From Sulfuricystis thermophila (GTDB taxonomy: Bacteria > Pseudomonadota > Gammaproteobacteria > Burkholderiales > Rhodocyclaceae): a DNA stretch of 64,000 nt. The DNA is taken from NCBI RefSeq assembly GCF_004323595.1, contig NZ_AP019373.1, forward strand, positions 1,674,001 to 1,738,000. Reading direction: 5' to 3'. Positions 24,763-48,213 of the stretch are shown in pieces (positions within the stretch are counted from its first letter, which is position 1; each line of letters opens with the position of its first letter). The translations under genes and the position numbers were made by a program. Below the pieces are notes generated by a model that ran no database searches, had not been told where the DNA came from, and worked only from the letters and a program-made list of their open reading frames with translations.

Positions 24763-26280
24763 ATGCACCGTTTCCTGATCTCCGCCGCGCACAAGTCCTC
24801 GGGCAAGACCACGCTATCCATCGGACTGTGTGCGGCGCTGCGCGCACGCGGTCTCACCGTCCAGCCTTTCAAGAAAGGGCCGGACTACATCGATCCGCTC
24901 TGGCTCTCCACAGCCGCCGGCCGTGGCTGCCGCAATCTCGACTTCTTCCTGTCGCCGCACGATGAAATCCTGCGGCAATTCAGTTACGGCCACGATGCCG
25001 ACGTCTGCCTGGTCGAGGGCAACAAGGGACTCTACGACGGCCTCGCCCTCGATGGCAGCAACAGCAATGCCGCGCTGGCCCGACTCCTCGACCTGCCGGT
25101 GATCCTCGTCCTCGACGCGCGCGGCCAGACGCGCGGCATCGCCCCGCTGATCCTCGGCTACCAGGCCTTCGATCCGGCGATCCGCATCGCCGGCGTGATC
25201 CTCAACCGTCTCGGCGGCAGCCGTCACGAAGCCAAACTGCGCGCCGTCGTCGAGCATTACACCCATGTGCCGGTGCTCGGTGCGGTCCACGAAGACCCCC
25301 GACTGGCCGTGGTCGAGCGCCATCTCGGCCTGATGCCGGCGAACGAAGCCGCACAGGCCGAGCAGACCATCGCCGCGATCGCCGAGCGTGTCGCCCAGCA
25401 GGTCGATCTCGAACGGCTGCTGGCCATCACCAAGACCGATGCCGTCCTCCCCCCTCCTCCGCCCCGCCCGGTCCCGCCCAGCCCAAAAATCCGCGTGGCC
25501 ATCGCCCGCGATGCCGCCTTCGGCTTCTACTACACCGACGATCTCGAAGCGCTCGAGGATGCCGGCGCTGAGCTGGTGCCCTTCGATACCCTTCGCGATG
25601 CGCACCTGCCGCCCTGTGACGCGCTGCTGATCGGCGGCGGCTTTCCGGAATCCTTTCTCGACGAGTTATCAGCCAACAGCAGCCTGCGCGAGGAGATCCG
25701 TTCCGCCATCGCCGCGGGCATGCCCGCCTATGCCGAGTGCGGCGGATTGATGTACCTCGCCCGTTCGATCACCTGGCAAGGCAAATCCCGGCCGATGGTC
25801 GGCATAATTCCAGGCGACATTCTGATGCACGACAAACCGGTCGGCCGCGGTTATGTGCTGATCGAGCCCACCCCCGACCATCCCTGGTGGTCGGGAGAGT
25901 GCCGTCCCGCCAGCGCCGACTCTTCGAAAAAAGGCGGCGCCCGGCGGGACGCTCCCATTTCCGCCAGCGCCGACTCTTCGAAAAAAGGCGGCGCCCGGCG
26001 GGACGCTCCCATTTCCGCCGGCGCCGACTTTCCGATCATCCATGCCCACGAATTCCATTATTCGGAGATTCGCGGGCTGCCGGCCGACCAGCGCTATGCC
26101 TATCGGGTCAAACGCGGCCATGGCACCGATGGCCAGCACGACGGCATTCTTTGCCACAATCTGCTGGCCTCTTACACCCATCTGCGCGGCACGGCCGGTT
26201 GCGACTGGCCGGAACGCTTCATCCGCTTCGTCAGACAATGTACCATTCCGACCCCGGAGACCATCCCATGTTCACCCTGA
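24763..26280 (+). CDS. dsrN: DsrN, cobyrinate a,c-diamide synthase-like siroheme amidase
   Basis: The 505-residue CbiA/CobB-type glutamine amidotransferase amidates siroheme for DsrAB in A. vinosum. The N-terminal synthase has the P-loop SAAHKSSGKTTLSIGLC and KKGPDYIDP. The C-terminal glutaminase has the nucleophile in AECGGLMYLA and a late His in YTHLRG. ATG 24763 gives the family N-terminus; an in-frame GTG at 24733 is less likely. Between TPDHPWW and HAHEFHYSE lies a low-complexity insert of about 45 residues (379-423) made by tandem palindromic repeats. The insert is in frame, so the enzyme is probably functional. Confidence 0.93.
   Translation: MHRFLISAAHKSSGKTTLSIGLCAALRARGLTVQPFKKGPDYIDPLWLSTAAGRGCRNLDFFLSPHDEILRQFSYGHDADVCLVEGNKGLYDGLALDGSNSNAALARLLDLPVILVLDARGQTRGIAPLILGYQAFDPAIRIAGVILNRLGGSRHEAKLRAVVEHYTHVPVLGAVHEDPRLAVVERHLGLMPANEAAQAEQTIAAIAERVAQQVDLERLLAITKTDAVLPPPPPRPVPPSPKIRVAIARDAAFGFYYTDDLEALEDAGAELVPFDTLRDAHLPPCDALLIGGGFPESFLDELSANSSLREEIRSAIAAGMPAYAECGGLMYLARSITWQGKSRPMVGIIPGDILMHDKPVGRGYVLIEPTPDHPWWSGECRPASADSSKKGGARRDAPISASADSSKKGGARRDAPISAGADFPIIHAHEFHYSEIRGLPADQRYAYRVKRGHGTDGQHDGILCHNLLASYTHLRGTAGCDWPERFIRFVRQCTIPTPETIPCSP
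25897..26031 (+). repeat. in-frame tandem array of the palindromic element in dsrN
   Basis: The core (GAGTGCCGTCCCGCC then AGCGCCGAC) recurs at exact 54-bp steps: CAGCGCCGAC at 25911 and 25965, and CGGCGCCGAC at 26019. Between cores lies TCTTCGAAAAAAGG, then CGGCGCCCGGCGGGACG, whose sequence is the imperfect reverse complement of the core; each unit can fold into a stem of about 16 bp. 54 bp is 18 codons, so copy number can change without a frameshift. The encoded repeat is ASADSSKKGGARRDAPIS. Confidence 0.9.
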
Positions 26281-26642
26281 CCCCCGCCGCCGCCCAGGAG
26301 ATCCTCTCTGCCGCTGCGGCCTATCAGCACGACGACGATGAAATCCCCTGCCTGCGCGTCGCGGCCAAGCTCGAAGACGGCGAGATCGTCTATGGCATGG
26401 GCTTCGACGAGCAGCGCGAGCAGGACACCGTCGTCGAATCCTGCGGGGTGACCGTGCTGATCTCCCCATTGAGCCGCGATCTGCTTGCCGACGCGACGCT
26501 CGATTTCGTCGAACTGCGGCCCGGTGAGTTCCAGTTCGTCTTCCTGCACCCCGAAACGGCTCCAGGCGCAGGGGGCGGCTGTGCCAGCCGCAGCAGCGGG
26601 TGCGGCAGTTGTGGTGGCGGTTCGACGGGAGGTTGCAGCTGA
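26268..26642 (+). CDS. dsrR: DsrR, A-type iron-sulfur-scaffold-like protein
   Basis: The first 100 residues of this 124-residue protein have the IscA-like fold signature ([49 protein letters not shown]). It lacks the regular IscA cysteine triad in the domain, as A. vinosum DsrR does; DsrR acts in dsr expression after transcription. Unusually, a Gly/Ser/Cys-rich tail follows ([17 protein letters not shown]...GGC). ATG 26268 follows CGGAGACCATCCC and overlaps the dsrN end by 13 bp. Confidence 0.85.
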
Positions 26643-26644
26643 AG

Positions 26645-27439: not shown

Positions 27440-27447
27440 CGAGTATG

Positions 27448-27478: not shown

Positions 27479-27530
27479 ACGAGTTCTCTCAAGACCGGCG
27501 CCAGCGCAGTCGTTATATCGTGGTAAAGCC

Positions 27531-28946
27531 ATGACCAACCACGACAGCGAAGCCCAATTCATCGACATCGCCGATCTGCGCATCGGCATGTACGTCTATG
27601 TCGATCTGGGCTGGATCAAGCATCCCTTCGCGCTCAACAGCTTCAAGATCAGCTCGCAGGAGCAGATCGACACGCTGATCGAACTGGGTGTCAAGCGCAT
27701 CCGCTGGTCGCCGGAAAAGAGCGATCTCGAACCACCCGCCGGGAATGTCCAGCATGCAGCGACCGGGCATGAGGACGCCCCGGCGGACGATAGCCAACAA
27801 AAAGTCGGCGCTGACGGGACGGCACCCCCCGCTGCCACCGACGCAAAAGCCGCCGATGAAGCGATCCATTCCGGCACAGCGAACCGCCAAGCGATCACCG
27901 AGCGCATCGTCGCCGAGGCCGCTGCCCTTGCCGAGGAACGCCGCCGGCGGCAGGAGATGCTCGCCGTCCAGCAGAGCAGCCTGGAAATCTGCGAACGCGA
28001 ATTCACCACCGCGGCGAAGAGCTACCGCCAGCTCGCCGAGCTGGTCACCAGTCAGCCGGAAACCGCCCGCGAACGCGCCGCCGCGATCGTCGGCAGGATG
28101 CTCGAGGACATGCTCTGCCAGGAAGAAACGGCGATCCGTCTGCTCTCCGAAACCGCAGGCGATCGCACCTCGCAGCATTCCATCAACGTCACCGTCATCG
28201 CCCTGCTGCTGGGAAAGGCGCTCGGCCTTGACAGCGCACGGCTCGAAACGCTCGCCCATGGCGCACTGCTACACGACATCGGCTTGATCGAGCTGCCGGA
28301 ACGGCTGCGCTGGATCGACAGCCAATTCACCACCGCCGAGCGGCGACTCTATCAGGAGCACGTCGCCCATGGTGTCAAGCTTGGCGAGCGCATGAAGCTG
28401 CCCCCCGAACAGCGGGTCATCATCGCGCAACACCACGAGCTGGCCGATGGACGGGGTTTTCCCGCCAGGCTGCGCGGCGAAGAAATCGACCCTCTGGCGC
28501 GCATCGTCGCCCTGGTCAATCTCTACGACAACCTCTGCAACCCCGCCCATCCGGCCCAGGCGCTCACGCCGCACGAAGCCCAACGGCTGATCTTCGCGCA
28601 GATGCGCAACCAGTTCGACCCGAAGGTGTTGATGCCCTTCATCCGCATGATGGGCGTCTATCCGCCCGGCTCGGTGGTCGAGCTCACCGATGGACGCTTC
28701 GCCCTCGTCGTCTCCGTCAATGCGGCACGCCCCCTCAAACCGAACGTGATCATTTTCGATCCGCGCATCCCACGCGAAGAGGCGCTCATCGAAGACCTCG
28801 AACAGGCAGGAGACCTCGGCATCCGCCGCAGCCTGAAACCGCTGCAGTTGCCGAAAGCCGCCTTCGATTATCTGTCGCCGCGCCAGCGCATCTGTTACTT
28901 TTTCGAGCGGGCGATGCCCGTTCATGAGCACGGGCCCAGCCGATGA
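27531..28946 (+). CDS. HD-GYP domain protein (putative c-di-GMP phosphodiesterase)
   Basis: The 471-residue protein has an N-terminal DUF3391-like segment (FIDIADLRIGMYVYVDLGW), a linker containing an inverted repeat copy (KVGADGTAPP), and an HD-GYP domain from about 200. Metal-ligand positions look intact: HSINVTVIALLLG, HDIG (249-252), HVAHGVKLGERM, QHHELADGRGFP and LVNLYDNL. The usual Lys of HDIGK is Leu here (HDIGLIELP), and GYP is GFP. Activity on c-di-GMP is likely but not certain. Its stop overlaps the start of the GGDEF-EAL gene by 4 bp. Confidence 0.88.
   Translation: MTNHDSEAQFIDIADLRIGMYVYVDLGWIKHPFALNSFKISSQEQIDTLIELGVKRIRWSPEKSDLEPPAGNVQHAATGHEDAPADDSQQKVGADGTAPPAATDAKAADEAIHSGTANRQAITERIVAEAAALAEERRRRQEMLAVQQSSLEICEREFTTAAKSYRQLAELVTSQPETARERAAAIVGRMLEDMLCQEETAIRLLSETAGDRTSQHSINVTVIALLLGKALGLDSARLETLAHGALLHDIGLIELPERLRWIDSQFTTAERRLYQEHVAHGVKLGERMKLPPEQRVIIAQHHELADGRGFPARLRGEEIDPLARIVALVNLYDNLCNPAHPAQALTPHEAQRLIFAQMRNQFDPKVLMPFIRMMGVYPPGSVVELTDGRFALVVSVNAARPLKPNVIIFDPRIPREEALIEDLEQAGDLGIRRSLKPLQLPKAAFDYLSPRQRICYFFERAMPVHEHGPSR
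27799..27827 (-). repeat. half-copy of the dispersed palindromic element in the HD-GYP gene
   Basis: Read on the minus strand: GTGCCGTCCCGTCAGCGCCG followed by ACTTTTT, one base different from the core. It lies in the interdomain linker, in frame, and encodes KVGADGTAPP on the plus strand. Confidence 0.75.
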
Positions 28947-31378
28947 AAGACCGCACCTGGCAACCGTTGATCGAAGGCATGCTCGAAGCGGTCTGGATCG
29001 TCGACGCCCTCGAGCTACGCGTCCTCGCCGTCAACCGCGCTGCCAGCGAAATGCTCGGCATCCCGGCGGCGAATCTGGTCGGCAAGCCGGTCGTCGAACT
29101 CGCCGCCACCCCCGAAGACGTTTATTTCTGGGAAGACGTCGCCGCGGGACTCGCCGACCAGATCCATTCCGAAACGCTGTTGCGCCGAGCCGACGGCACG
29201 ACGCTGCCGGTCGAGCGCCGTGTCAGCCGTATCACGCTCAGCGATGCGGCGAGCATCTTCCTGGTCGGCATCCGCGATCAATCCGAAGAACGGCGCATCG
29301 AGGACGAGCTGGAAAAACTCGTCGCCGAGCTGCGCGCTACCCTCGAATCGACCGCCGACGGCATCCTCGTCACCGACCCGAACGGCGTGATCCGCGGCTA
29401 CAACCACCGCTTCGCGGAACTCTGGGACCTGCCGCAGGAACTGACGACGCAACGCAACGACGCGGCGATCCACGGCTGGATGGCACAAAACGTCGTCGAT
29501 GCCACGACCTACTCGGCGCGCCTGACGATGATCGCGCGCTCGCCGCTCATCGAAGCCACCGACACGCTGGTGCTGAAGAGCGGCAAGATCCTCGAGCGCG
29601 TCACCCTGCCGCAGTATGCGCGCGGCCGACCGATCGGACGCGTCTATTCCTTCCGCGACATCACCCGGCGCGTCACCGACGAATCCCGCCTCCAGCTCGC
29701 CGCCAAGGTTTTTTCCGCCAGCCTCGATGCGATCTTCGTCACCGATCCCGAGATGACGCTGATCGACGCCAACCCGGCCTGCGAGCGGCTCACCGGACTT
29801 TCCCGCGAGGAATTGATCGGCAAGCACACTTACGACATCCTCAGCGACATGGTCTCGCGCGAGCATTTCGCCGCGCAGGTGGACACGGCCTTGCAGACAC
29901 ACGGCTATTGGGATGGCGAGGCCTGGCACCGCAACCGCGCCGGCAATACCCTGCCCTGCCAGGCATCACTGGTGCGCGTGCTCGACAACCAGGGCGTACT
30001 ACTCCACACCATCGGCTTCTTCAAGGACCTCTCCGAAACGGTCAATGCCAAGAAGCGCATCGAAGAGCTGGCCTACACCGACGCGCTGACCGGTCTGCCG
30101 AACCGGCTGTTGCTCAACGAACGCATCGAATTCGCGCTCGGCCTCGCCCACCGCGAGAAGATCGGTTTCGCACTGCTGTTCCTCGATCTCGACCGCTTCA
30201 AACAGATCAACGACTCGCTCGGCCACATGTTCGGTGACCGCGTGCTCGTCTGCGTCGCCGAACGCATCAAGGATTGTTTGCGCCAGGTCGATACCGCCGC
30301 CCGCCTTGGTGGCGACGAGTTCCTCATCCTGCTGCACAAGACCGATGCCCGCGGCGCGGAAATCATCGCCCGGCGCATCCTCAACAGCCTCTCGCAGCCC
30401 TTCGTCCTCGACGACTTTTCCTTCACCATCACCTGCAGCATCGGCATCGCGCTCTATCCCGACGACGGCGAGACGATGGACGACCTGATCAAGAACGCCG
30501 ACGCAGCGATGTACCACGTCAAGGAACGCGGCCGCGCCGGTTTCCGCTTCTATCAGCGGCAGATGAACGTCGGCCTGCTCTCGCGCATGAAGATCGACCA
30601 TGCGATGCGCCAGGCACTGGCCAATCCCACCGCCGAGAGCCACTTCCAGCTCTACTTTCAGCCACAGGTACGCTTCAGCGACAACGTAATCACCGGCGCC
30701 GAAGCCCTGCTGCGCTGGCGCGATGCCGAGCTGGGCGAAATCCCGCCGGCGCAGTTCATCCAGATCGCCGAGGAATCCGGCGTGATCGTCAGCATCGGCA
30801 ACTGGGTGCTCGATGCGGCGGTCGCCCAATGCGCCGCCTGGCAAGCGAAAGGCATCGATCTGACGATGGCCATCAACGTCTCGCCGCTGCAGTTCCAGCA
30901 AGCCGATTTCGTCGAGCGTGTCGGCCAGACGCTGAAAAAATACGCCCTGCCCCCCCGGCTGCTCGAACTCGAACTCACCGAGTCGATCCTGATCCAGGAC
31001 GTCGAAGATGCCATGCGCCGCCTCGCAGCGCTCGCCGCCCTCGGCGTGCAGCTGGCGATCGACGACTTCGGCACCGGCTATTCGAGTCTTTCCTATCTGA
31101 AACGCTTCCCGATCCACCGGCTGAAAATCGACCGCTCCTTCATCCAGGACCTGCCGGACGAAGAAAGCGACACGGCGATCGTCAATGCCATCATCCAGCT
31201 CGCCAACGCTCTGCGCCTCGCCGTCATCGCCGAAGGCGTCGAAACCACCGCGCAGCAGGATTTCCTCATCGCCGCCGGCTGCCAGGAATATCAGGGCTAC
31301 CTGTGCACTGCCGCTCTGCCAGCGCCGGATTTCGAAGCCTTCCTCGCGCGCCATCGACAGGCAAACGCCTCGCAATGA
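28943..31378 (+). CDS. PAS-PAS-PAS-GGDEF-EAL c-di-GMP turnover protein
   Basis: The 811-residue protein has three PAS-like sensor segments (about 5-110, 130-240, 250-370), a GGDEF domain (GGDEF at about 456-460) and an EAL domain (GAEALLRW at about 585-592). The inhibitory site RxxD is exactly five residues before GGDEF (RQVDTAARLGGDEF). EAL catalytic motifs are complete: INVSPLQF, LELTESIL, IDDFGTGYSSL, LKIDRSF, AEGVET and QGYL. Both domains may therefore be active. It is coupled to the HD-GYP gene by ATGA, giving a two-gene c-di-GMP unit. Confidence 0.93.
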   Translation: MKDRTWQPLIEGMLEAVWIVDALELRVLAVNRAASEMLGIPAANLVGKPVVELAATPEDVYFWEDVAAGLADQIHSETLLRRADGTTLPVERRVSRITLSDAASIFLVGIRDQSEERRIEDELEKLVAELRATLESTADGILVTDPNGVIRGYNHRFAELWDLPQELTTQRNDAAIHGWMAQNVVDATTYSARLTMIARSPLIEATDTLVLKSGKILERVTLPQYARGRPIGRVYSFRDITRRVTDESRLQLAAKVFSASLDAIFVTDPEMTLIDANPACERLTGLSREELIGKHTYDILSDMVSREHFAAQVDTALQTHGYWDGEAWHRNRAGNTLPCQASLVRVLDNQGVLLHTIGFFKDLSETVNAKKRIEELAYTDALTGLPNRLLLNERIEFALGLAHREKIGFALLFLDLDRFKQINDSLGHMFGDRVLVCVAERIKDCLRQVDTAARLGGDEFLILLHKTDARGAEIIARRILNSLSQPFVLDDFSFTITCSIGIALYPDDGETMDDLIKNADAAMYHVKERGRAGFRFYQRQMNVGLLSRMKIDHAMRQALANPTAESHFQLYFQPQVRFSDNVITGAEALLRWRDAELGEIPPAQFIQIAEESGVIVSIGNWVLDAAVAQCAAWQAKGIDLTMAINVSPLQFQQADFVERVGQTLKKYALPPRLLELELTESILIQDVEDAMRRLAALAALGVQLAIDDFGTGYSSLSYLKRFPIHRLKIDRSFIQDLPDEESDTAIVNAIIQLANALRLAVIAEGVETTAQQDFLIAAGCQEYQGYLCTAALPAPDFEAFLARHRQANASQ

Positions 31379-31537: not shown

Positions 31538-34500
31538 TCATTTGGTTCGTTCTTGCCATCCACCTATCGGTTTAAATTTATCCAGAAACGGCGGTGGAAC
31601 CTCACCGGGCGGCTGCCCACCACCACCTGTTGTTGATACATAATATTTTGCTTTTCCACTTGGAAGGGTAAATACTCTGGGGGGTGTTACGTATCCGGCA
31701 TACGTGGTCGCCATGTTGGTATTGGGTCCTCCTGGCACGAAAGCCACATGCCCTGAACGGTAGTCTATTGTATAAACCCAGCTTGTGAACCCGGTCGTGT
31801 TACATGGGTCCGGGGTATCTGGCTTGGTTGTCGAGAAAACCAAAGTTGTAAATGCCAGAACAGGATCAGTCACACCACGCTCCCCGGCGTCTGGGAAGTC
31901 GAGTTGCCAACCAAGGTTGTTGTCGTCATCAAACACGCTATCTGGCCTTCCATCACCATTGATGTCGTAAATCGTACCAGTTCGACCAGCACCACCAGCG
32001 CTGACCGGCACATTGACGAGCCCGTTTGCGGGCGTGGTGCCACCCAGCCAGTCCCAGATGCCATAAAAACTCTGTGACTGGGTGTTGGCCAGGTCGGAAT
32101 TGCCCAGCAGACGTCCGGTCGGGAAGAACACGACACGTTTCTTGACGCTGGTATTGGTTTTCGTCACTTCGCCGAGTTCCGGCCGCGCGGTGATCGGCTG
32201 GTTCGGCCCGGCATCGAACAACAGGCTGACGACGGGCGCCCCGCCACCCGTAAAATCGAACTTCCACAGCTTGCCGAGCAAGTCACCGCCATAGACATAT
32301 TTCGTCGTATTGTCCTTGAGCGGATTGTCCGCCCAGGCGGCGATGCGTGCGAGGCCGCTGGGCGTCGTCGTGTTGCCCTCACCGGTGCTCACTTTGTAGA
32401 TGACCGCGCCGGTCATTGCATCGAGCACATAGAGGTATCCTTTACCATCGCCGTTGACATGGTTGTTATACCCCGAGGTGACCATCACCACCCATTGCCC
32501 GTTCGGTAGCTTGGTGATCACCGGGTTGCCAAAGCTGTAGCCGAGATCGCAATCCTCGATCATGCGCGCGATGCCCGAGGAGGCATAGCGTGCCGCACCG
32601 GCCGGCGTCGACGCCGTGCAGCCCGGCTTCTGGCGAAACTCCCACAGCACTTGGGGCGCCGTCTGGTTCGTGATGTCGAGCGCATAATAACCCGGTCCGC
32701 CAGCGGCCAGCCCACCGACCAGGATGGTCTTCCAAGTCCCTCCATCCTTGACGTCCATCACTGCCGGCGAGCCATCGACGAAGTAGCGATGCTTGGTGTC
32801 GTAATCCTTGTCGGCGAGACGGTACAGATCGCGGATGACCATCGAGGGGATATATGCCCAGCGCTCCTGACCACCACCACTTGCTGCATCTTTGGCATTA
32901 AACGCATGAAGCATGCCGTCATTAGCAGCGACGTAGACTGTTGGGTCGGTCCGTGGAGTTCCACGAACAGGGTAGCCAGTGCTGGTACCATAATCTTTTG
33001 TATATCTACCGACATAAATGGCCTCTGAGCTGACAATGTCTCCGAGCCTTCCATCCCGTTTACGATAGTAGCCCGTCGTGTTGACGGTATCCTCGTTGCT
33101 TTTGTCACCCCGCAGATAATCGACCAGCGGCACTCCAGCTGCCGCAGTCTGGTCCGAAGATGTAAGACAGAGCGGTCCGATGGAACAGTATTGAGCCAGT
33201 CCGCCAGCGATCCAGGACTGATCGAAACATCCCTGTTCGCTCACGGGCGGATTACAGGTCCCTGGATTGAGAGATGCGTAAGAGAAGACTCGTGGGGTGC
33301 CGCCTCCAGCCTTGAATGTGTAGATCGAACGGCCGCTCCAGCTAGCAGCATCCAACAAAGTATGCGCTTGCCAATCTCCTGCACTACTATAAGGCATACC
33401 CGATAACGTATCGATCGACATTCGCACTAACTCTCCAGTCCATTTCTGTGTCCAGTATTTTGAAATAAATATCATGTTGTCACTGGAAGAAACATTGGGA
33501 TTACTGGTAGTCGCTGCAGCATTACTCCCATCATCAATCCATATGTCATTAATAATATCTCGAAGACCACGGCTCAGCGTCAGGGGGTCCTTGGCCAGCA
33601 GATAACTTCCATGGCCATTGACACTGGCATGCCAAAGATCATCGATATTGGCCTGGCTATCGGCTGAAGGTTGCGGCCAATTGCAGGCGCCTGAAGTCTG
33701 CCAAGGACAGATACCGTTGGCGGCATTCGTGGCACTGGCGGTCACCGCGTTACTCACGGCATCGTAGTCATCGGTCGGATCACCACTCGGCGTCTTATAG
33801 TCGGCGCGGTACTGCATCAGGCCGTCTACGCCCAGGCTGACGCCATAAGTCACCATGTGTTGAACAGTGTTCATGTCGACGCCACTTCTGGTCAGCACGT
33901 TGTCAGTACAAACTGATCCACCAGCCACACCCAGCACGCCGGTGCAGTTGCCGAGTGCGGGCGTGCGCAAGTCGGTTTTGTAGTAATACGCGGCGACATC
34001 GGCGAGTGTGCCAGTCCAGCCATCCGAGAAAGGCCCCGTCACGCCGCCGATGACCATGCCGCTGCTGTCTTCATTGCCGATCGCACTGTTATCGAGACGC
34101 ACACCACCAGCGCCATTCCAATAACCGTCGGTCGTGACGATGCTGAAGTTCCTCTGGCAGGAATATTGCACTGGATCAGTCGCACCGGTAAGGCCGGAAG
34201 ATTTCGCGTAATAGCGTCCCACGCGCGACAGCGCCTCGCGCAAAGGTGTCCCACCGGACGGGCTGATCGAGAACAGACGGGAGTACCAATCCTGCTTTTG
34301 GCCACTCGGACCAGGCACGAAATTGAAGTCGGCGATGTTGATCAGATCGCGGTTTCCGGTCGTGTTGCCATTGATGGTCATGAAACCGACACGAAAACGG
34401 TCATCGACACCCTGGAAAGCGATCGATATGGCAGTTTTCGTAGACTGGATGCGAGAACGATACCAGGCGAACCAGTTGGCGAAATTGCCCAGCTCCTGCG

Positions 34501-35710
34501 CGTATGAGCACGAACTTGCGGAACAATCATTACGACCGGAGCGATCGAGGGCGGTGAACTCGCTGGAATTGCATGCCCCGAAGCGTTCGGTGACCGTGCC
34601 GGTAGCAGACACGCACAGGTTGCCATAATTCGCCTTGCCCGGCACGATGTCGATGCGCATGAAGCGGCCGGGGGCATACGTCGGGCCGGTCGTGCTGACA
34701 CGCAACGTCGGGTAGCGAGGATATTGATAAGCCGAATTTTTCAATGCCTGGCAGCGATCGGTCGCGGCCGCCACAGCCCCATCGACCAGCCGGTCGCGAC
34801 CGCGAGTGTTGTTGCACCAGCGCAAGGCAGCGGGATAGTTATAAGCCACGCCCCCGACCGTCGTCGGGACCCAGGAGGCAACACAGTTGGTCAGTTTGCG
34901 GTTGGTACAGAACTCGCCCGGGATCATCACATAGTAATGTGGCCCGGCATCGCGATTGGTATCGACCGTCGGCGCCTGCGGAGTGCCGGTAACGAATTTT
35001 CCGCTACCGGTGGCGCGCACTGCATGCATCGTTGTGTAATTTTTACCGGCGACTGTGCCCGGAACGAGATAGTTGTCAGCGCGCAGGCAATCGGTATAAC
35101 TCGTGTTGGTACACCATTCGGTATCCGGAAATTCGCTGCGCAGATCGATGCCCTGTGCTCCGTACATTACCCCATAGGCATCCCAGGGCGTCGTCCCGGT
35201 ACCGCTGTAACTCGTGCGGCTGCTACCATCGGCATTGACCGGAGGCAGGTAACGGATGGTCGGGTTGTAGTAGGTCGAATTGAAGCCACCATTGACGAGC
35301 TCTGTTTTACTGCCGATCTTGATGGTCCAGGTGGTATGCGTCAGGAAAGGCGGCATGCCGCGCTGGTTGGTCCCGCCTGAATAGACGGTATCGATGTTAT
35401 TGCCGGCAGCATTCTGCGGCAGGCAGACCCAAGCGCTGCTATTGCTGCCGGGTTGTCGGCAGCATTTCGTGCCCGTTTCACCATTGTTGTTCTTACAGTA
35501 GTTAGCGTCACTGAATCCCAGCCAATCTGGTAAATAATCGAAACGCATCGAGCCCGAATCGTCGAGCAGGAACATCAGATTCGGTTTGACCGGTGAGGAG
35601 CTTGGAGTAATTAATGGCCCGTTTGCAATATCGGTAGGAGCAGCGAACGCAATCGAACCAATAAAAGCTATTCCAATTACAGTTGCAATGTATCTAGCGT
35701 TGAGCTTCAT
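31538..35710 (-). CDS. pilY1: PilY1-type pilus tip/assembly protein
   Basis: The 1390-residue exported protein has a signal peptide (MKLNARYIATVIGIAFIGSIAFA), an early von Willebrand A-like metal site LLDDSGSM (about 48-55) and a C-terminal PilY1 beta-propeller from about 900. A calcium-loop-like DINGDGRPDSVFDDD lies near the end. PilY1 works with minor pilins in type IV pilus assembly, adhesion and mechanosensing. The gene is somewhat less GC-rich than the window, especially in its 5' and 3' thirds. It is last in the minor-pilin operon, 30 bp after pilX. Confidence 0.92.
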   Translation of the reverse strand: MKLNARYIATVIGIAFIGSIAFAAPTDIANGPLITPSSSPVKPNLMFLLDDSGSMRFDYLPDWLGFSDANYCKNNNGETGTKCCRQPGSNSSAWVCLPQNAAGNNIDTVYSGGTNQRGMPPFLTHTTWTIKIGSKTELVNGGFNSTYYNPTIRYLPPVNADGSSRTSYSGTGTTPWDAYGVMYGAQGIDLRSEFPDTEWCTNTSYTDCLRADNYLVPGTVAGKNYTTMHAVRATGSGKFVTGTPQAPTVDTNRDAGPHYYVMIPGEFCTNRKLTNCVASWVPTTVGGVAYNYPAALRWCNNTRGRDRLVDGAVAAATDRCQALKNSAYQYPRYPTLRVSTTGPTYAPGRFMRIDIVPGKANYGNLCVSATGTVTERFGACNSSEFTALDRSGRNDCSASSCSYAQELGNFANWFAWYRSRIQSTKTAISIAFQGVDDRFRVGFMTINGNTTGNRDLINIADFNFVPGPSGQKQDWYSRLFSISPSGGTPLREALSRVGRYYAKSSGLTGATDPVQYSCQRNFSIVTTDGYWNGAGGVRLDNSAIGNEDSSGMVIGGVTGPFSDGWTGTLADVAAYYYKTDLRTPALGNCTGVLGVAGGSVCTDNVLTRSGVDMNTVQHMVTYGVSLGVDGLMQYRADYKTPSGDPTDDYDAVSNAVTASATNAANGICPWQTSGACNWPQPSADSQANIDDLWHASVNGHGSYLLAKDPLTLSRGLRDIINDIWIDDGSNAAATTSNPNVSSSDNMIFISKYWTQKWTGELVRMSIDTLSGMPYSSAGDWQAHTLLDAASWSGRSIYTFKAGGGTPRVFSYASLNPGTCNPPVSEQGCFDQSWIAGGLAQYCSIGPLCLTSSDQTAAAGVPLVDYLRGDKSNEDTVNTTGYYRKRDGRLGDIVSSEAIYVGRYTKDYGTSTGYPVRGTPRTDPTVYVAANDGMLHAFNAKDAASGGGQERWAYIPSMVIRDLYRLADKDYDTKHRYFVDGSPAVMDVKDGGTWKTILVGGLAAGGPGYYALDITNQTAPQVLWEFRQKPGCTASTPAGAARYASSGIARMIEDCDLGYSFGNPVITKLPNGQWVVMVTSGYNNHVNGDGKGYLYVLDAMTGAVIYKVSTGEGNTTTPSGLARIAAWADNPLKDNTTKYVYGGDLLGKLWKFDFTGGGAPVVSLLFDAGPNQPITARPELGEVTKTNTSVKKRVVFFPTGRLLGNSDLANTQSQSFYGIWDWLGGTTPANGLVNVPVSAGGAGRTGTIYDINGDGRPDSVFDDDNNLGWQLDFPDAGERGVTDPVLAFTTLVFSTTKPDTPDPCNTTGFTSWVYTIDYRSGHVAFVPGGPNTNMATTYAGYVTPPRVFTLPSGKAKYYVSTTGGGGQPPGEVPPPFLDKFKPIGGWQERTK

Positions 35711-35740
35711 GATCGCTCCCGTGCTCGTTAATCAGAACTT

Positions 35741-36352
35741 TCAATTGGTTGGTATAACAAAAGTCTGCATAAATGCTACTGTATTACGAGGGCCATTGAC
35801 ACGAACAATGATGCGGTAATACGTTGAAAGTCTAAGATAAAAAGGTCCATCTCCGTCGTGGTCATCAGATGGTATCTCTTCCGGTGATCTTGCACATATC
35901 TGTCCAACAGCATCCTCGGTACCATTTGCAGAACACATTCGTTGGATCAGGTAAGACACGACATGACCGGTATTCGGGTCGGGCGGCAAAACCTGAGGTG
36001 CATGAGATGTCACATAACCACTCCACCAACTCTGCCAACTTTGGCCTGATAGCGGATGATCATTGAGCGCATTCGCAACGTAGAAGGGGGTATCTGTATA
36101 ACCTGGCAGATTTGGATCTTCGAGTAACAATCCGGTACCTGCAGCATTTGTGAGCCAATCAATTGCAGTCTGGAAACCACGATCAGCCTGATTGATCGCA
36201 CTTTTGTGCAACGAAAGATTGCCAGCCGTCAGGATGCCGCTGTCCGCGGTGCGAAACAAGGCAATCCCGGAGAGAAGCATGGCTACGAGGACGATGAGGG
36301 CGAGAAAGAGGATCACGCCGCGTTGCCGGGAGGGAATCTGTCGTTTGTTCAT
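35741..36352 (-). CDS. pilX: PilX-type minor pilin assembly protein
   Basis: The 203-residue protein has a short basic leader (MNKRQIPSRQRG) followed by VILFLALIVLVAMLLSGIALF, typical of PilX N-termini, and a soluble domain of moderate complexity. The start ATG 36352 sits 1 bp after the pilW stop. Much of its 3' part is clearly AT-richer than flanking housekeeping genes, consistent with the variability of surface-exposed pilus genes or with acquisition. Confidence 0.85.
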   Translation of the reverse strand: MNKRQIPSRQRGVILFLALIVLVAMLLSGIALFRTADSGILTAGNLSLHKSAINQADRGFQTAIDWLTNAAGTGLLLEDPNLPGYTDTPFYVANALNDHPLSGQSWQSWWSGYVTSHAPQVLPPDPNTGHVVSYLIQRMCSANGTEDAVGQICARSPEEIPSDDHDGDGPFYLRLSTYYRIIVRVNGPRNTVAFMQTFVIPTN

Positions 36353-36353
36353 G

Positions 36354-37541
36354 CTACACCCCGCGCCAGATGACATTTCGCAGCGCCACCGTGGTGTAAG
36401 CAACCCGATAGCGATAGTGCTGATCCGGGACGTTCCAGACCGGTCCCTGGGTCAGAGGACCGTCGGCGGCGCTCGCATTGTCGGGCCACAGTTTGAGGGT
36501 GGCAGGACTGACCGGGTCCTTCTCTGCCTGACCGCTGCGGGACACCACGGCGATGCGCACTGCCAAGATGCGCGACCAGTCTTCTGCCCGGTCCGCTTGG
36601 TTGGCAGCCGAACCCGGTGTATCGCTCAGACCGGTATCGTTGACGGGACAGGCGCCGCCAGGCGGCACACGGGTCTTACAGAACACATCGATGACCCCAT
36701 CCCGGTTCGAGGCATTTGTATCGACGCCGTATTGCGCCACGAGGGCGACCACGTCGTTGGCGACTGGCATCCAGACCATTGGGTTATTCGTTGCGGTGGG
36801 ATCGGCGCAGTTGGAATCAAGGAAGTTGCAACGCGTCAACATCCCATTACGAATGGCATAGACGGCAAAAACAGGAGTCTTTCCCACATGCATAATGCGT
36901 GTTCCTTCATTGCCTCTTTTAAAGGTGTACGCGGAGGCAAGCGGATGATCGATATCAACATCACCGCTCACGTCGACCCTTGTAGCTCGCGTCAAAGTGC
37001 AGTCTTTGTTTTTTTCTCCAACAAGCAGAAAATCGCCAGCTTCAATGCCACTTGGATCTTCAAGTGGAATCTGAACAGCACCTGCGGCTACGTCTGTATC
37101 TCTTAATCGACTACCCCCAATCAGCGTCGCGGCATCAGCCAGCGAGAAAACGAGCATATCTGAACCAGGGTCGCCAGGTGGAATTCCCCACAAGTTAGCT
37201 TGATGAGTAGAGTTTGCACCATCTGGCACAATACTCACTGTCAGAAGGGTAAGATTGTTTAGCCTGTTTAAGTTAGTTGCTGAGCCTGAATTGATCCTGC
37301 ACCCTAATACTGCATCGCTTATAAAACCGATGCCGGCACTTTGTATGTCGCGCTCGATCTGATAAAGAGCAATGAGCGCACCAGACTGTGCCTCGCCCAG
37401 GCTGCCAAGAGCGCGTTTGCCACTTTCGCCACGCATATAGACCTGCATGATCGCGATGGTGCCAATCATCGCGATGACCATGGCAACCAGGAGCTCGATT
37501 AGGCTGAAGCCTCGAGGTGTGGTGAGGGATTTGTTGGCCAT
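36354..37541 (-). CDS. pilW: PilW-type minor pilin
   Basis: The 395-residue protein has a prepilin peptidase site, TPRGFSLIELLVAMVIAMIG (cleavage after Gly, Glu at +5), and a large C-terminal domain. PilW is one of the minor pilins that prime type IV pilus assembly with PilV, PilX and PilY1. It starts 3 bp after pilV. Confidence 0.88.
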   Translation of the reverse strand: MANKSLTTPRGFSLIELLVAMVIAMIGTIAIMQVYMRGESGKRALGSLGEAQSGALIALYQIERDIQSAGIGFISDAVLGCRINSGSATNLNRLNNLTLLTVSIVPDGANSTHQANLWGIPPGDPGSDMLVFSLADAATLIGGSRLRDTDVAAGAVQIPLEDPSGIEAGDFLLVGEKNKDCTLTRATRVDVSGDVDIDHPLASAYTFKRGNEGTRIMHVGKTPVFAVYAIRNGMLTRCNFLDSNCADPTATNNPMVWMPVANDVVALVAQYGVDTNASNRDGVIDVFCKTRVPPGGACPVNDTGLSDTPGSAANQADRAEDWSRILAVRIAVVSRSGQAEKDPVSPATLKLWPDNASAADGPLTQGPVWNVPDQHYRYRVAYTTVALRNVIWRGV

Positions 37542-37544
37542 AAA

Positions 37545-37958
37545 TTATTTCCTGATCTGACTCACAACAGCGTAGCGGTGGGGCGCAACATCGGTTGGCG
37601 CCTGCCATGAGATCGTGATCGTGACGACATTGTCAGCACCCACCGTAACGGTCGGCGCATTGACACCGGTCGCCCCCGGCAGCCCCGTCCCGGCGGCCTG
37701 AATCAGATTACGCCAGGCAACAAATTTAGCCCCACCCATATTGGAGTCGTATTGAGTGGCTAGAGTGGCCGGATCATCCGTCCACATCTGGCTGAGCAAC
37801 TGGTCGGCGTACATCGCCGCCTCGGCGCGGTATTTGGCCTCGCCGGTCATTTGCGAGGCTACGGCCTGCATGCCGAGCAGCCCGAGGATGCCGAAAGCGA
37901 ACAACAGCAGTGCGACGAGCACTTCGAGCAGTGTGGCGCCTTTTTGAATCTTTTCCAT
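37545..37958 (-). CDS. pilV: PilV-type minor pilin
   Basis: The 137-residue prepilin-like protein begins MEKIQKGATLLEVLVALLLF. The processing site has Ala-Thr-Leu-Leu-Glu after Gly, with Glu at +5. LLGMQAVASQMTGEAKYRAEAAMYADQLLSQMW matches the PilV helix region. ATG 37958 is chosen over the upstream in-frame codon, which lies in fimT. The order fimT-pilV-pilW-pilX is the classical minor-pilin operon. Confidence 0.87.
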   Translation of the reverse strand: MEKIQKGATLLEVLVALLLFAFGILGLLGMQAVASQMTGEAKYRAEAAMYADQLLSQMWTDDPATLATQYDSNMGGAKFVAWRNLIQAAGTGLPGATGVNAPTVTVGADNVVTITISWQAPTDVAPHRYAVVSQIRK

Positions 37959-37969
37959 GCTGGTCACCC

Positions 37970-38506
37970 TCAACACGCCTGGGGATCGCCCGCTGGTCGG
38001 CGCGGATCGCACAAACGCACCTCGCCCCCCACGGCCACGGTGATACGCAGACAGCGTATCGAGCCGCCTGCTCCTTCGCAGTTGTCCACGCCAGGATTCG
38101 TGATGTCGATATCCACCACGGCAGGCGGTGAGGCGGGCAGAATGCGCCGACCCAGATTGTCGAAGACGATATCGACGTTGCCGCCGGCAACCATCGCTTC
38201 GACCGTGCCGCCATCGGCGGCGGATTTCTGCTGGATCACCGTCAAGTCCGGCAGCAACACCTGCCAGCCTCCGCCAACGCCGCTGGCTGGATCGAAACGG
38301 AAGGTGATCTCCATGTTGCGCTTGAGTGCCTCGGTCCGGGCATATTGCAGGCCAGACAAAACCCCATCGGCAACGGCGCGCACGCGGAGATTGGCGAGCA
38401 TCGTCACGAAGCCCGGATAGGCGATCAGCAACAAGAAAGCCAGCAGCGCAATGGCCACCATCATCTCGATGAGGGTGAAACCTCGTGCCGAGCCAGATTT
38501 CAGCAT
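37970..38506 (-). CDS. fimT: FimT/GspH-type pseudopilin
   Basis: The 178-residue protein has the type III signal [21 protein letters not shown] and a GspH-like domain ([21 protein letters not shown]). Its cysteines near the C-terminus may pair. Its start overlaps the pilE stop by 7 bp. FimT has been linked to DNA uptake and pilus assembly. Confidence 0.87.
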
Positions 38507-38931
38507 GAGCCGCCTCGCCTGATCACCCAGCAGGTGGCATTGGCCGTCCAACCGGCGGGAACGGCAGTCGTCGCCCGATTGTTGTTCTGATCGATCGTGT
38601 AAGTGAAGCCAGCCGTCCGTTCGCCGGCTCTGCCTTGCGCCTGAATCGTGTAAGTCGTTGCAGACAGATTTAAACAGGAATAATTGAAAAACCGCCCTGT
38701 CGGCAGCGGAGCGACGGTGTTCGCCGCACAGGCGCCCACATAGGTGCGGTTGTCGAGGAAATAGGTTTCCATTTTCGCGCGCATTGCGGCAAGCTCGCCA
38801 TGCGCTTCGGACAGTGCTCCCCGCAACAGATAATCGTTATACGCCGGCAGGGCTATGGCAGCCAGGATGGCGATGATGGCGACCGTCACCATCATCTCGA
38901 TCAGGGTGAAACCGCGCTGCGCCTGTTTCAT
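38500..38931 (-). CDS. pilE: PilE-type IV pilin-like protein
   Basis: The 143-residue protein starts [29 protein letters not shown], the prepilin peptidase site and pilin helix, followed by [31 protein letters not shown]-terminal cysteine pair ([10 protein letters not shown]) could close the disulfide loop. It is first in the minor-pilin operon, and in this context it is a minor pilin rather than clearly the major subunit. Confidence 0.88.
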
Positions 38932-39053: not shown

Positions 39054-39983
39054 TCAGTCGAGCCCTTTCGGCAACGGAAAGCGCACGCCCTCGTCTTCCT
39101 GCGCGATTTCCGGCTGCGGGGCGCCGGTGAGTTTGGCGACGGCCGCGACGACTTCGGCGACCAGCGCCTCAGGCGCCGAGGCGCCGGCCGTGACGCCGAC
39201 CGCGTTCGCGGCCGCGAACCATTCGGGACGAATCTCCGCGGCGCGGTCGATCAGCCAGGCTTTCACGCCCTGCTGCTCGGCCACTTCGCGCAGGCGGTTG
39301 GAGTTCGAGCTGTTGGGCGAGCCGACGACGAGGATCACATCGCACTGCTGGGCGAGCCGGCGCACGGCATCCTGGCGGTTTTGCGTCGCGTAGCAGATGT
39401 CGTCCTTCTTCGGGCCGACGATGTCGGGAAAGCGGGCCTTCAGCGCCGCGACGATCGCCGCGGCATCATCCACCGAGAGGGTGGTCTGGGTGACGTAGGC
39501 CAAAGGAGGTGCCGTCCCGCCAGCGCCGAGTTTCAGCGTGGCCACGTCGGCAACGTTCTCGACCAGATACATGCCATCCGGCCATTGCCCCATCGTGCCT
39601 TCGACTTCGGGGTGCCCTCTGTGGCCGATCATGATCACCTCGCGGCCGGCCTTGCGATGGCGTTCGACTTCGAGATGCACCTTGGTCACCAGCGGGCAGG
39701 TGGCATCGAACACTTTCAGGTCGCGCCGCTCGGCCTCGGCGCGCACGCTCTTGGGCACGCCGTGGGCGGAGAAGATCACCGTCGCGCCATCGGGCACTTC
39801 GTCGAGCTCATGGACGAAGACGGCGCCCTTGGCTTTCAGGTCATCGACGACGAAGCGGTTATGCACGACCTCGTGGCGCACATAGATCGGCGCACCGAAC
39901 TTTTCCAGCGCGCGCTCGACGATACTGATCGCGCGTTCGACGCCGGCGCAGAAACCGCGGGGGTTGGCGAGCAGGATTTGCAT
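39054..39983 (-). CDS. ispH: 4-hydroxy-3-methylbut-2-enyl diphosphate reductase
   Basis: IspH performs the last step of the MEP isoprenoid pathway using a [4Fe-4S] cluster. The 309-residue chain shows the three ligands in PRGFCAGV (Cys12), [12 protein letters not shown] and [10 protein letters not shown], and [10 protein letters not shown] short loop before LAYVTQTT is replaced by [10 protein letters not shown], encoded by a repeat copy. The window also holds ispA and dxs, parts of the same isoprenoid supply. It starts just after fkpB. Confidence 0.96.
39505..39533 (+). repeat. half-copy of the dispersed palindromic element in ispH
   Basis: GGAGGTGCCGTCCCGCC followed by AGCGCCGAGTTT, an exact core, lies antisense within ispH. 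In the gene frame it encodes [10 protein letters not shown] in a loop where IspH proteins vary in length. Confidence 0.8.
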
Positions 39984-46588: not shown

Positions 46589-47052
46589 CGCCGCCCCCGT
46601 TCGCTGACCGCTTCGATGCAGGCATGACGGCCATCGCCGGCATGCAGGAGCCGGATGGAGATGTCCGGCGGCGGCAGATAAGGTGCCGCCCGATTTGGCC
46701 ACTCGACCAGACAAAGCCCTTCATTGGCGAAGTATTCGTCCACTCCGGCATCGAGAAATTCTTCCGGAAAATTGAACCTATAAAAATCAAAGTGATATAA
46801 GTGTAATCCAGAAATTACATAAGGTTCAACCAGGGTGAAGGTCGGGCTCTTGACCGGTCCGCGAAAGTCGAGTTTTTGCAACAGTCCGCGCACCAGCGTG
46901 GTCTTGCCGGCGCCGAGATCGCCTTCGAGATAAATGACGGCCGCAGGGCTCACATCTTTAGGCAATAGGCCGGCAAGCCAAGCCCCCAACGCCAGCGTGG
47001 CCGTCTCGTCGGGTAATTGAAATTCACGGCGGTTATCATCGGTGGCATGCAC
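46525..47052 (-). CDS. tsaE: tRNA t6A biosynthesis ATPase TsaE
   Basis: The 175-residue protein has the P-loop GDLGAGKTTLVRGLL, SPTFTLVEPY and HFDFYRFNFPEEF typical of TsaE, which helps the TsaBD complex form t6A37. No ATG fits; GTG 47052 gives an N-terminus that aligns with FQLPDETATLALG. Its start overlaps by 6 bp the start of the divergent queG, and its end runs into amiC. Confidence 0.9.
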   Translation of the reverse strand: MHATDDNRREFQLPDETATLALGAWLAGLLPKDVSPAAVIYLEGDLGAGKTTLVRGLLQKLDFRGPVKSPTFTLVEPYVISGLHLYHFDFYRFNFPEEFLDAGVDEYFANEGLCLVEWPNRAAPYLPPPDISIRLLHAGDGRHACIEAVSERGRRWLASSPALPAATSSAPARPS

Positions 47053-48213
47053 GACTGGACTGCCCTCAAGGAAAAGATCCGCGGCTGGGGACGGGAGCTG
47101 GGTTTTACCGCGGTCGGCTTTGCCGGCATCGATCTCGGCAGCGCAGAACAGGGACTGCTCGACTGGCTCGCCGCCGGCTGTCACGGCACGATGGATTATA
47201 TGGCCCGTCACGGCGCGAAACGGGCACGGCCGGCCGAACTGGTACCGGGCACGCGCTGCGTGATTTCCTGCCGGATGGACTATCTGCCCGCCCACCCTTT
47301 TCCGGAGTGCCGTCCCGCCAGCGCCGACTCTCCGAGACAAGGCGGCGCCCGGCGGGACGCCCCATTTCCCGCCAGCGCCGACTCTCCGAGACAAGGCGGC
47401 GCCCGGCGGGACGCCCCATTTCCCGCCAGCGCCGACTTCCGCGATGCGCCGCAGGCCGTCATCTCGCGTTACGCGCTCGGCCGCGACTACCACAAGGTCG
47501 TGCGCAGCCGCTTGCAAAGGCTCGCCGAGCGGATCGAGGCCGAAACGGGCCCCATCAACCATCGCGCCTTCACCGATTCCGCGCCGGTGATGGAAGTGGA
47601 GCTTGCCAAAAACGCCGGCCTCGGCTGGCGCGGCAAACATACGCTGCTCCTGTCGCGCAGCGGTTCGTGGTTTTTCCTCGGCGAGCTGTTCGTCGATCTA
47701 CCGCTGCCGCCGGATGGACCGATCGCCGATCATTGCGGCCGCTGCACTGCTTGTCTCACGGCCTGTCCGACCGGCGCCTTTCTCGGCCCCTACCGGCTCG
47801 ACGCCCGCCGCTGCATTTCCTACCTGACCATCGAGCATGCCGGCAGCATTGCAGCGGAACTGCGTCCGCTGCTCGGCAACCGCATCTATGGCTGCGACGA
47901 CTGCCAGCTCGTCTGTCCCTGGAACCGCCATGCACCGACGACCCGCGAAGCCGATTTCCTGCCGCGCCACGGTCTGGACCGAGCGACATTGGTAGAGCTA
48001 TTCGCCTGGAGCGAGAGTGAATTCAACGAGCGGCTGGCGGGCTCGCCGATCCGGCGCATCGGTTACGAGCGCTGGCTGAGGAACATCGCCATAGCACTCG
48101 GCAATGCCGCACCAGACCCTGCAGCGAAAGCGGCTTTGCTCGCGCGAGCGGAGCATCCGTCGGCGCTGGTGCGCGAGCATGTGGCCTGGGCCTTGTCGCG
48201 TTATCCGGGCTGA
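47047..48213 (+). CDS. queG: epoxyqueuosine reductase QueG
   Basis: QueG reduces epoxyqueuosine to queuosine in tRNA using cobalamin and two [4Fe-4S] clusters. The 388-residue chain shows ISRYALGRDYHKVVRSRL, CGRCTACLTACPTGAF and GCDDCQLVCPWNRHAP. ATG 47047 gives the standard N-terminus; an in-frame TTG at 47017 is weaker. Residues 87-131 are a repeat-derived insert between DYLPAHPFPE and FRDAPQAVISR, a place where family members have only a short loop. The reading frame is kept. Confidence 0.94.
   Translation: MHDWTALKEKIRGWGRELGFTAVGFAGIDLGSAEQGLLDWLAAGCHGTMDYMARHGAKRARPAELVPGTRCVISCRMDYLPAHPFPECRPASADSPRQGGARRDAPFPASADSPRQGGARRDAPFPASADFRDAPQAVISRYALGRDYHKVVRSRLQRLAERIEAETGPINHRAFTDSAPVMEVELAKNAGLGWRGKHTLLLSRSGSWFFLGELFVDLPLPPDGPIADHCGRCTACLTACPTGAFLGPYRLDARRCISYLTIEHAGSIAAELRPLLGNRIYGCDDCQLVCPWNRHAPTTREADFLPRHGLDRATLVELFAWSESEFNERLAGSPIRRIGYERWLRNIAIALGNAAPDPAAKAALLARAEHPSALVREHVAWALSRYPG
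47305..47438 (+). repeat. in-frame tandem array of the palindromic element in queG
   Basis: CAGCGCCGAC recurs at 47319, 47373 and 47427, exactly 54 bp apart, preceded by GAGTGCCGTCCCGC. Each unit holds TCTCCGAGACAAGG and CGGCGCCCGGCGGGACG, an imperfect inverse of the core. The array has the same period, register and reading frame as that in dsrN but a different spacer (TCTCCGAGACAAGG versus TCTTCGAAAAAAGG). It encodes ASADSPRQGGARRDAPFP repeats. Confidence 0.9.

What the first reader, a model, noticed from the sequence alone, without database searches (positions are those of the whole stretch)
25897..47438. A dispersed palindromic element that inserts in frame into genes in several reading frames
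The core GTGCCGTCCCGCCAGCGCCG followed by ACTTT (or GAGTTT) is seen at about ten sites (182, 7612, 8719, 17956, 25897, 27799, 39505, 47305, 53216, 57163; partial at 62885). Most lie inside coding genes (J-domain gene, dsrN, HD-GYP, ispH, queG, dxs, prmC), always in frame and at loops or linkers. It is read in different frames: CRPASAD in dsrN/queG, PAPSF in the J-domain gene, and GAGGTAP when reversed in ispH. The element has no stop codon in the frames used. This resembles the Rickettsia palindromic elements in principle but has a different sequence. Essential enzymes tolerate it, so it seems to spread while being filtered for loop positions.
Basis: partly seen in the sequence, partly recalled or inferred. 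Interest (0 to 1): 0.85.

Follow-up and report, generated by a model that had tools for sequence, protein, structure and literature searches.

The report
Possible DNA-uptake tags in Rhodocyclaceae
This bacterium and related genera carry hundreds of copies of one 23-letter DNA tag that arises and is kept in place largely by small mutations, with genus-specific spellings, as expected of the self-recognition tags that some bacteria use to choose which DNA to take up; such tags have been known from only two other bacterial families.

Summary
The repeat is real, but it is not mainly a mobile palindrome. The unit is a sharply bounded, asymmetric 23-nt motif, GCCGTCCCGCCAGCGCCGACTTT: 365 copies of the 26-mer (3 or fewer mismatches) in the 2.74-Mb genome, 184/181 by strand, control 0. 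Same-genus comparisons show it gained, lost and even shifted to the opposite strand by substitution without indels at many sites, while flanks diverge. Some positions vary freely, others almost never; copies avoid each other (0 gaps under 500 bp, 13.6 expected). The frame GCCGT-N12-GACTTT is enriched in 22 of 150 family genomes (10 of 68 genera) with a genus-specific middle, and outside the family stands out in 1 of 386 genomes of the order. On a 60-row ComEC tree the 19 motif-bearing rows fall inside one 34-row clade. Best reading: a DNA-uptake-sequence system with dialects, like Neisseriaceae DUS and Pasteurellaceae USS, in a third family. Uptake function and receptor are inferred, not shown. 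The palindrome is a secondary hairpin expansion in 54-nt steps at about 11 of 83 sampled sites, two in the window.

The parts
182..207 (+). weak copy between genes (6 mismatches to the 26-mer)
   Evidence: copy also in G019 and G126 at the same place, absent and shorter in G163
6141..6166 (+). copy inside the LpxK gene (gene on the minus strand)
   Evidence: G126 has it, G019 has 7 mismatches, no indel
7613..7638 (+). copy in the DnaJ-like gene, near its start
   Evidence: no indel against G019 and G126; DnaJ match is below Pfam's cut-off
8720..8745 (+). copy in the same DnaJ-like gene
   Evidence: 9-nt indel upstream in G019, none in G126
17958..17983 (+). perfect copy between genes
   Evidence: core recognisable in six species while flanks differ
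25899..26030 (+). long form in the CbiA/CobB-type (DsrN) gene: motif plus two 54-nt hairpin units
   Evidence: eight relatives have a single core at this place (G156 with 5 mismatches)
27800..27825 (-). copy in the HD-domain (HD-GYP-like) gene
31308..31333 (+). weak copy at the end of the GGDEF/EAL gene, perhaps only a near match
   Evidence: 6 mismatches; G126 lacks it without indel
39509..39534 (+). copy in the LytB/IspH gene (gene on the minus strand)
   Evidence: G019 has a 63-nt longer form here
47307..47438 (+). long form in the QueG gene: motif plus two 54-nt hairpin units
   Evidence: G126 and G019 have a single core here
51294..51319 (+). copy in the polyprenyl synthetase gene
   Evidence: no indel against G019 and G126
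53217..53242 (+). copy in the Dxs gene
   Evidence: no indel against G019 and G126
57165..57190 (+). copy in the PrmC gene (gene on the minus strand)
   Evidence: no indel against G019, the only relative aligned
62877..62902 (+). weak copy just upstream of the gene at 62909
   Evidence: 5 mismatches; no relative aligned
38500..38931 (-). type IV minor pilin with a ComP_DUS match; candidate DNA receptor, not shown
   Evidence: 42.8 bits, cut-off 27.3; the same family is also found in motif-free genomes

Best explanation
The motif is a self-recognition tag of the DNA-uptake-sequence type. Shown here: a 23-nt asymmetric DNA motif, hundreds of copies per genome, no strand bias, sharply bounded, position-specific tolerance, gained and lost in place by point mutation at many sites (at others together with variable segments), kept at orthologous places while flanks change, read mostly in three of six frames, copies that avoid each other in this genome, found in one clade of the family, with a different middle in different genera. 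Inferred: a surface DNA receptor, probably a type IV minor pilin, prefers DNA carrying the local spelling; natural transformation brings in tagged DNA of relatives; homologous recombination replaces untagged alleles, so tags build up wherever protein or spacer tolerates them; drift of the receptor makes dialects. The long form is a secondary hairpin expansion at existing tags.
For: 365 copies, 184/181 by strand. Turnover by substitution, with a strand switch of about 30 nt in one gene without length change. Orthologous copies 0.89 identical against 0.67-0.70 for their flanks. Position-specific tolerance, chi-square 574 on 22 df; 98/98 strand balance over 0-1.4 Mb; 0 gaps under 500 bp against 13.6 expected. 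Frame choice and peptides that follow the DNA. Frame enriched in 22 of 150 family genomes in 10 of 68 genera, genus-specific middles, at background in 385 of 386 genomes of other families of the order. All 19 motif-bearing rows in one clade of a ComEC tree. ComEC/Rec2 in 21 of 22 motif-bearing genomes. The one of 21 stretches without a copy (5 or fewer mismatches) is a DISARM-like island. These traits match what is described for uptake sequences (PMC1939737 and PMC2397512 passages; PMC2346458 and PMC3630211 abstracts).
Against: No uptake, binding or transformation data; I found no report of competence in these genera. ComEC and the ComP_DUS pilin are as common in motif-free genomes (118 of 128 for ComP_DUS; 20 of 22 motif-bearing) and G045 and G138 have copies of the motif but no ComP_DUS hit. 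The motif is about twice as long as DUS and rarer (about one per 7 kb at 3 or fewer mismatches). In 20 of 36 motif-free comparisons a segment of more than 9 nt is missing too, so not all turnover is by substitution. One-strand positions in G010 are not evenly spaced. Depletion in acquired DNA rests on one stretch.
Confidence: 0.62

Rival explanations
1. The motif is the binding site of a chromosome-organising, segregation or repair protein inside the cell, and the dialects reflect co-evolution with that protein.
For: Copies avoid each other; long, informative, position-specific site; patchy genera would be those that have the protein.
Against: No strand bias along 0-1.4 Mb (98/98), so no polar role such as Chi or KOPS; spacing not even in G010 on one strand; no such system with hundreds of 23-nt sites and genus dialects is known to me (recall).
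Confidence: 0.22
2. The copies are decayed remains of a mobile palindromic mini-element (Rickettsia palindromic element, REP or MITE like) that inserts and then decays; the long form is the parent.
For: The long form is palindromic, dispersed and shares loops and spacers between loci; it adds 54-nt units, or 63 nt in G019; 20 of 36 motif-free comparisons lack a longer segment as well.
Against: Substitution-only gain and loss at many sites; uneven tolerance across positions; relatives have a single motif where the window has the long form, so the long form came second there; arms found at about 11 of 83 sites; other genera keep the 23-nt frame with another middle; no Y1 transposase in six same-genus genomes.
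Confidence: 0.08
3. The motif is a self mark read by another system, such as defence against foreign DNA or an orphan DNA methyltransferase.
For: Genus-specific spelling and absence from one defence island would fit a self mark.
Against: No matching enzyme was sought; a site of over 20 informative positions is longer than usual methyltransferase sites (recall).
Confidence: 0.05
4. The motif acts as RNA or as a transcription terminator.
For: The long form folds strongly and 30 of 83 sites are between called genes.
Against: Two single-motif sites fold no better than shuffles (z about -0.8); 52 of 83 sites are inside genes, in both orientations.
Confidence: 0.02
5. Ordinary protein homology or codon bias produces the repeated words.
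For: None found.
Against: 12 hits against 0.04 in shuffles; unrelated genes, several frames, both strands and spacers; relatives without the motif have other letters at the same place.
Confidence: 0.01

Closest known systems
DNA uptake sequence (DUS) of Neisseriaceae and its dialects (PMC3630211, abstract and outline read)
   Same: Many dispersed copies in genes and spacers, both strands, genus or species dialects with a constant part, tied to a phylogeny; also Betaproteobacteria in the older sense.
   Different: DUS is about 12 nt with over a thousand copies and a known receptor, ComP; this motif is 23 nt with constant ends and a variable middle, hundreds of copies, no receptor known and no function tested.
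Uptake signal sequence (USS) of Pasteurellaceae (PMC1939737 and PMC12616744, passages read)
   Different: Unrelated sequence (9-nt core); another class of bacteria; uptake bias is proven there.
Rickettsia palindromic elements (recalled; one search gave only a listing)
   Same: Repeats inside protein genes, read in frame.
   Different: They are longer, palindromic insertions; here most within-genus gene-site comparisons in the window show substitutions without indel.
REP/BIME elements with RAYT (recalled)
   Same: The long form is a dispersed hairpin in tandem units.
   Different: The short motif is not palindromic; no Y1 transposase in six same-genus genomes.
Chi, KOPS, HIP1 (recalled; HIP1 seen only as a listing)
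   Same: Over-represented genomic words.
   Different: Chi and KOPS are short and strand-polar, HIP1 is an 8-bp palindrome; this motif is long, asymmetric and strand-neutral.

Membership tests
DNA uptake sequence system (DUS/USS kind) | Hundreds or more dispersed copies far above chance | tested here: met
   365 copies, control 0
DNA uptake sequence system (DUS/USS kind) | No orientation bias along the chromosome | tested here: met
   184/181 genome-wide; 98/98 in 0-1.4 Mb
DNA uptake sequence system (DUS/USS kind) | Evolves in place, largely by point mutations, in genes and spacers | tested here: met
   but 20 of 36 motif-free comparisons also lack a longer segment
DNA uptake sequence system (DUS/USS kind) | Related dialects along the phylogeny | tested here: met
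   ends fixed by the search
DNA uptake sequence system (DUS/USS kind) | Competence machinery present | tested here: inconclusive
   ComEC/Rec2 in 148 of 150 family genomes, so not specific
DNA uptake sequence system (DUS/USS kind) | Rare in acquired DNA | tested here: inconclusive
   one motif-free DISARM-like stretch of 21
DNA uptake sequence system (DUS/USS kind) | Specific receptor such as ComP | tested here: inconclusive
   ComP_DUS family in 20 of 22 motif-bearing and 118 of 128 other family genomes
DNA uptake sequence system (DUS/USS kind) | Motif increases DNA uptake or transformation | not testable with these tools
   needs an experiment
Rickettsia palindromic element | Unit is a palindrome | tested here: not met
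   two single-motif sites fold like shuffles; only the long form folds
Rickettsia palindromic element | Present as an insertion relative to orthologues | tested here: not met
   no indel at six window sites against G019 and/or G126; the long form does meet it at two sites
REP element with RAYT | Y1 transposase in the genome | tested here: not met
   0 in G000, G019, G126, G080, G163, G155; present in 5 of 6 motif-bearing genomes of other genera

The most novel reading that the evidence does not exclude
Rhodocyclaceae are a third bacterial family with sequence-specific DNA uptake: one clade carries a 23-bp uptake tag with constant ends and a genus-specific 12-bp middle (seven spellings seen), which acts as a mating barrier between genera, and a hairpin repeat has colonised the tags.
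Probability: 0.55. Interest if true: 0.92.

Novelty: new variant of a known kind. Interest (0 to 1): 0.85.

Why it matters
[quoted passage not shown] A third, apparently free-living family with many dialects would show that such tags are not tied to host-associated bacteria, would give a third case for testing molecular drive against selection for recombination, and would offer a natural series of tag spellings for finding a receptor and its recognition code. It would also explain odd linker peptides in essential enzymes of these bacteria and give a tag to add to DNA when trying to transform them.

Tried and rejected
Mobile palindrome, codon bias, strand-polar words and REP/RAYT were tested and set aside. 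ComP_DUS as the discriminating receptor was not supported; ComEC presence does not discriminate. The window's GspH/FimT-like pilin ends in GGEVR rather than the GRxR described for FimT (PMC8897410 passage), so it was not pressed as receptor. A codon-choice count is circular because sites were chosen as near matches; the peptide test is used instead, though its patterns were written from the observed peptides. K-mer counts in ten genomes, 40 kb each, gave one new dialect, G010; G042 gave a terminator-like hairpin repeat and G023 a repeat around GGAAATAGGGGAC. Four motif-free genomes from three genera of the motif-bearing clade gave no dialect in 80 kb each; the top G083 word is a REP-like repeat. 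The first ComEC tree used a wrong reading frame for seven rows and was dropped; one search replaces it (quick method only). Exact 23-mers occur in 40 IMG/VR contigs, one copy each in 38; host flanks are likely, so this was not used.

Literature: (Rhodocyclaceae with 'DNA uptake sequence') 0 papers; (motif letters) 0 papers; searches listed nothing whose title or shown abstract reports uptake sequences in this family; only listings were seen unless an abstract or passage is named. Subscription papers and preprints are not held.

Rows dropped: 1 of 70 sites for short flanks and comparisons with unalignable flanks; 85 of 200 g1 copies without exact ends, and 50 of 100 listed G148 copies, were not used for the dialect table.
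Full report
What is there. The repeat is real: 12 core hits with up to 3 mismatches in the window against 0.04 expected. The window lies in a single-contig 2,737,315-bp genome with 365 copies of GTGCCGTCCCGCCAGCGCCGACTTTC at 3 or fewer mismatches, 184 on one strand and 181 on the other, reversed-pattern control 0. In 464 kb (the window plus 20 stretches) 98 sites have 5 or fewer mismatches to the 23-mer, against 2, 2 and 3 for three control words; conservation starts abruptly at GT-GCCGT and ends at CTTT-C, with no conserved flank.

The organism. A few titles differ (Proteobacteria, Sulfuritalea, Oxalobacteraceae, Deltaproteobacteria, Bacteroidia, Betaproteobacteria) and may in part be binning or naming errors.

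Mostly not an insertion. I aligned 14 window sites with stretches of nine same-genus genomes; one site (62877) found no relative. At 6141, 7613, 31308, 51294, 53217 and 57165 there is no indel against G019 and/or G126, only substitutions (at 7613 the more distant G080 does differ in length). At 17958 and 25899 the core is recognisable in six and nine species while neighbouring sequence differs in length and letters. Over 182 non-independent comparisons from 69 sites, 120 have the motif (38 without indel), 26 are partial (9 without indel) and 36 lack it: 11 without indel, 3 with a small one, 2 with an insertion and 20 with more than 9 nt missing as well, of varied length. So substitution is common but not the only route. 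The clearest case is one stretch in four species: all have one copy (that of G150 weak, 5 mismatches), two species on one strand and two about 30 nt away on the other, with no length change; a second site nearby has the motif in two of the four, again without indel. In the 120 motif-to-motif comparisons the motif is 0.89 identical and the 30-nt flanks 0.67 and 0.70; unrelated copies are 0.87 identical and random flanks 0.52. Each copy is thus held to a consensus rather than passively inherited.

Constraint and layout. Among 200 listed copies (the first 100 returned for each strand), positions 0 and 15 never vary and positions 5, 6, 7 and 19 vary in 46, 52, 28 and 58; chi-square 574 on 22 df. 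Strands are balanced 98/98 over 0-1.4 Mb, roughly one replichore by the GC skew of the stretches (inference). No two of 199 copies lie closer than 500 bp (13.6 expected), 7 closer than 1 kb (25.9 expected); gap CV 0.79 against 0.99 at random, 4 in 5000 shuffles as low. Against this, one-strand positions in G010 are not evenly spaced (CV 1.13), and each strand of G000 taken alone is only weakly so.

Inside genes. With a simple codon-score gene finder (366 genes; it misses some, for instance most of 31.5-38 kb), 52 of 83 sites with 4 or fewer mismatches are inside genes, 30 between genes, 1 over a gene end. Frames are far from equal: 28 antisense frame 0 (KVGAGGTA), 11 sense frame 0 (AVPPAPTF), 8 sense frame 1 (CRPASADF), 5 in the other three. 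Of 41 occurrences of these peptide patterns, 40 are coded by a copy with 4 or fewer mismatches and 1 by one with 5, so the DNA makes the peptide.

Dialects. K-mer counts in ten family genomes gave one new word, in genus g11. Three of its four copies with 1 or no mismatch in 40 kb read GCCGTG-CTGGCG(G/C)GACT-GACTTT, the same 23 positions with the same ends; the 17-mer has 54, 44 and 42 copies in the three g11 genomes and 1-2 in five others of 150. The frame GCCGT-N12-GACTTT was then counted in 150 family genomes: 22 genomes in 10 of 68 genera have 26 to 677 copies with controls of 0-7; the other 128 have 0-16, with small excesses in a few (G056 16 against 7, G066 12 against 3, G041 10 against 0). 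In an order sample of 399 genomes, 386 of them outside the family, only G245 stands out (18 against 2). Consensus middles from the listed copies: g1 CCCGCCAGCGCC (115), g9 CCCGCCAGCACC (26), g64 ATCACCAGCGCC (50), g46 ACCGCTAGCGCC (50), g45 loosely nnnnCCAGCGTC (26), g66 ACCGCCACGGCT (50), g11 roughly SYYGCGGSGACT (100). Because the search fixed the ends, dialects with other ends would be missed. On a ComEC tree of 60 chosen genomes all 19 motif-bearing rows lie in one 34-row clade (SH-aLRT 98) and need 7 changes; one origin with losses would fit but is not proven (quick method). Four motif-free genomes from three genera of that clade showed no dialect in 80 kb each, while two positive controls did.

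Long form. At 25899-26030 and 47307-47438 the motif is followed by an inverted copy and a half motif in 54-nt units that fold strongly as single strands (z -4.9 and -4.3); two plain sites do not (z about -0.8). Relatives aligned there have a single motif, and G019 has a 63-nt longer form where the window has a plain copy at 39509. Inverted arms sit at 11 motif sites in 464 kb (13 of 16 arm hits; 3 are chance); 20 other loci of G000 and G019 share loops and spacers, with compensatory changes visible by eye in some. This is a secondary repeat at motif sites. No Y1 transposase was found in six same-genus genomes; 5 of 6 motif-bearing genomes of other genera have one. Its mover, if any, is unknown.

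How it probably works. Point-mutation evolution and no orientation bias (PMC1939737, passages), a preferred orientation in reading frames (PMC2346458, abstract), concentration in permissive core regions, rarity in accessory DNA and gain by recombination too (PMC2397512, passages), and dialects as barriers (PMC3630211, abstract) are described for known uptake sequences. The only one of 21 stretches of this genome without a copy is a DISARM-like island, one case. ComEC/Rec2 is found in 148 of 150 family genomes, missing in one motif-bearing draft, G149; a minor pilin cluster with a ComP_DUS match lies in the window, but that family is as common in motif-free genomes and not found in motif-bearing G045 and G138. 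Receptor and uptake are therefore inferred. The main rival is an intracellular DNA-binding protein with a genus-specific site.

Novelty. A 2025 paper names Neisseriaceae and Pasteurellaceae as the only families known to do this (PMC12616744, passage). My searches listed nothing on uptake sequences in Rhodocyclaceae; subscription papers and preprints were not covered.

Noticed in passing
L173 (G000:C1:1801001-1821000): The only one of 21 stretches without a motif copy (5 or fewer mismatches) encodes a DISARM-like defence island: PLD, MZB, helicases, a UvrD-like protein, an MmeI-type methylase and an SNF2 helicase by Pfam; the DISARM name is recalled.
   Followed up: partly
window 31538-38931: Type IV minor pilin cluster on the minus strand: PilY1, PilW, a GspH/FimT-like pilin and a ComP_DUS pilin.
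   Followed up: partly
window 60191-60328 and 62740-62877: 138-nt inverted repeat, 98% complementary, 2.4 kb apart; the right arm ends where the weak motif copy at 62877 begins.
   Followed up: no
window 61854-62015: Two tandem 81-nt repeats, 94% identical, with a CTCC...GGAGG hairpin-like core.
   Followed up: no
G245 (another family of the order): 18 copies of GCCGT-N12-GACTTT against control 2, at least two with a Rhodocyclaceae-like middle; transfer, contamination or an outlying member.
   Followed up: no
L251 (G042) and L416, L418, L419 (G083): Other dispersed repeats: an AAAACGGCGAGGC hairpin and a REP-like GGTTGCGGCTTCGCCGCGTGCCGCTTT repeat.
   Followed up: partly
L432-L435 (G148): Besides the motif, the words TAGGGGTTTAG and AGACCCCGGTT are strongly over-represented in 80 kb.
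   Followed up: no
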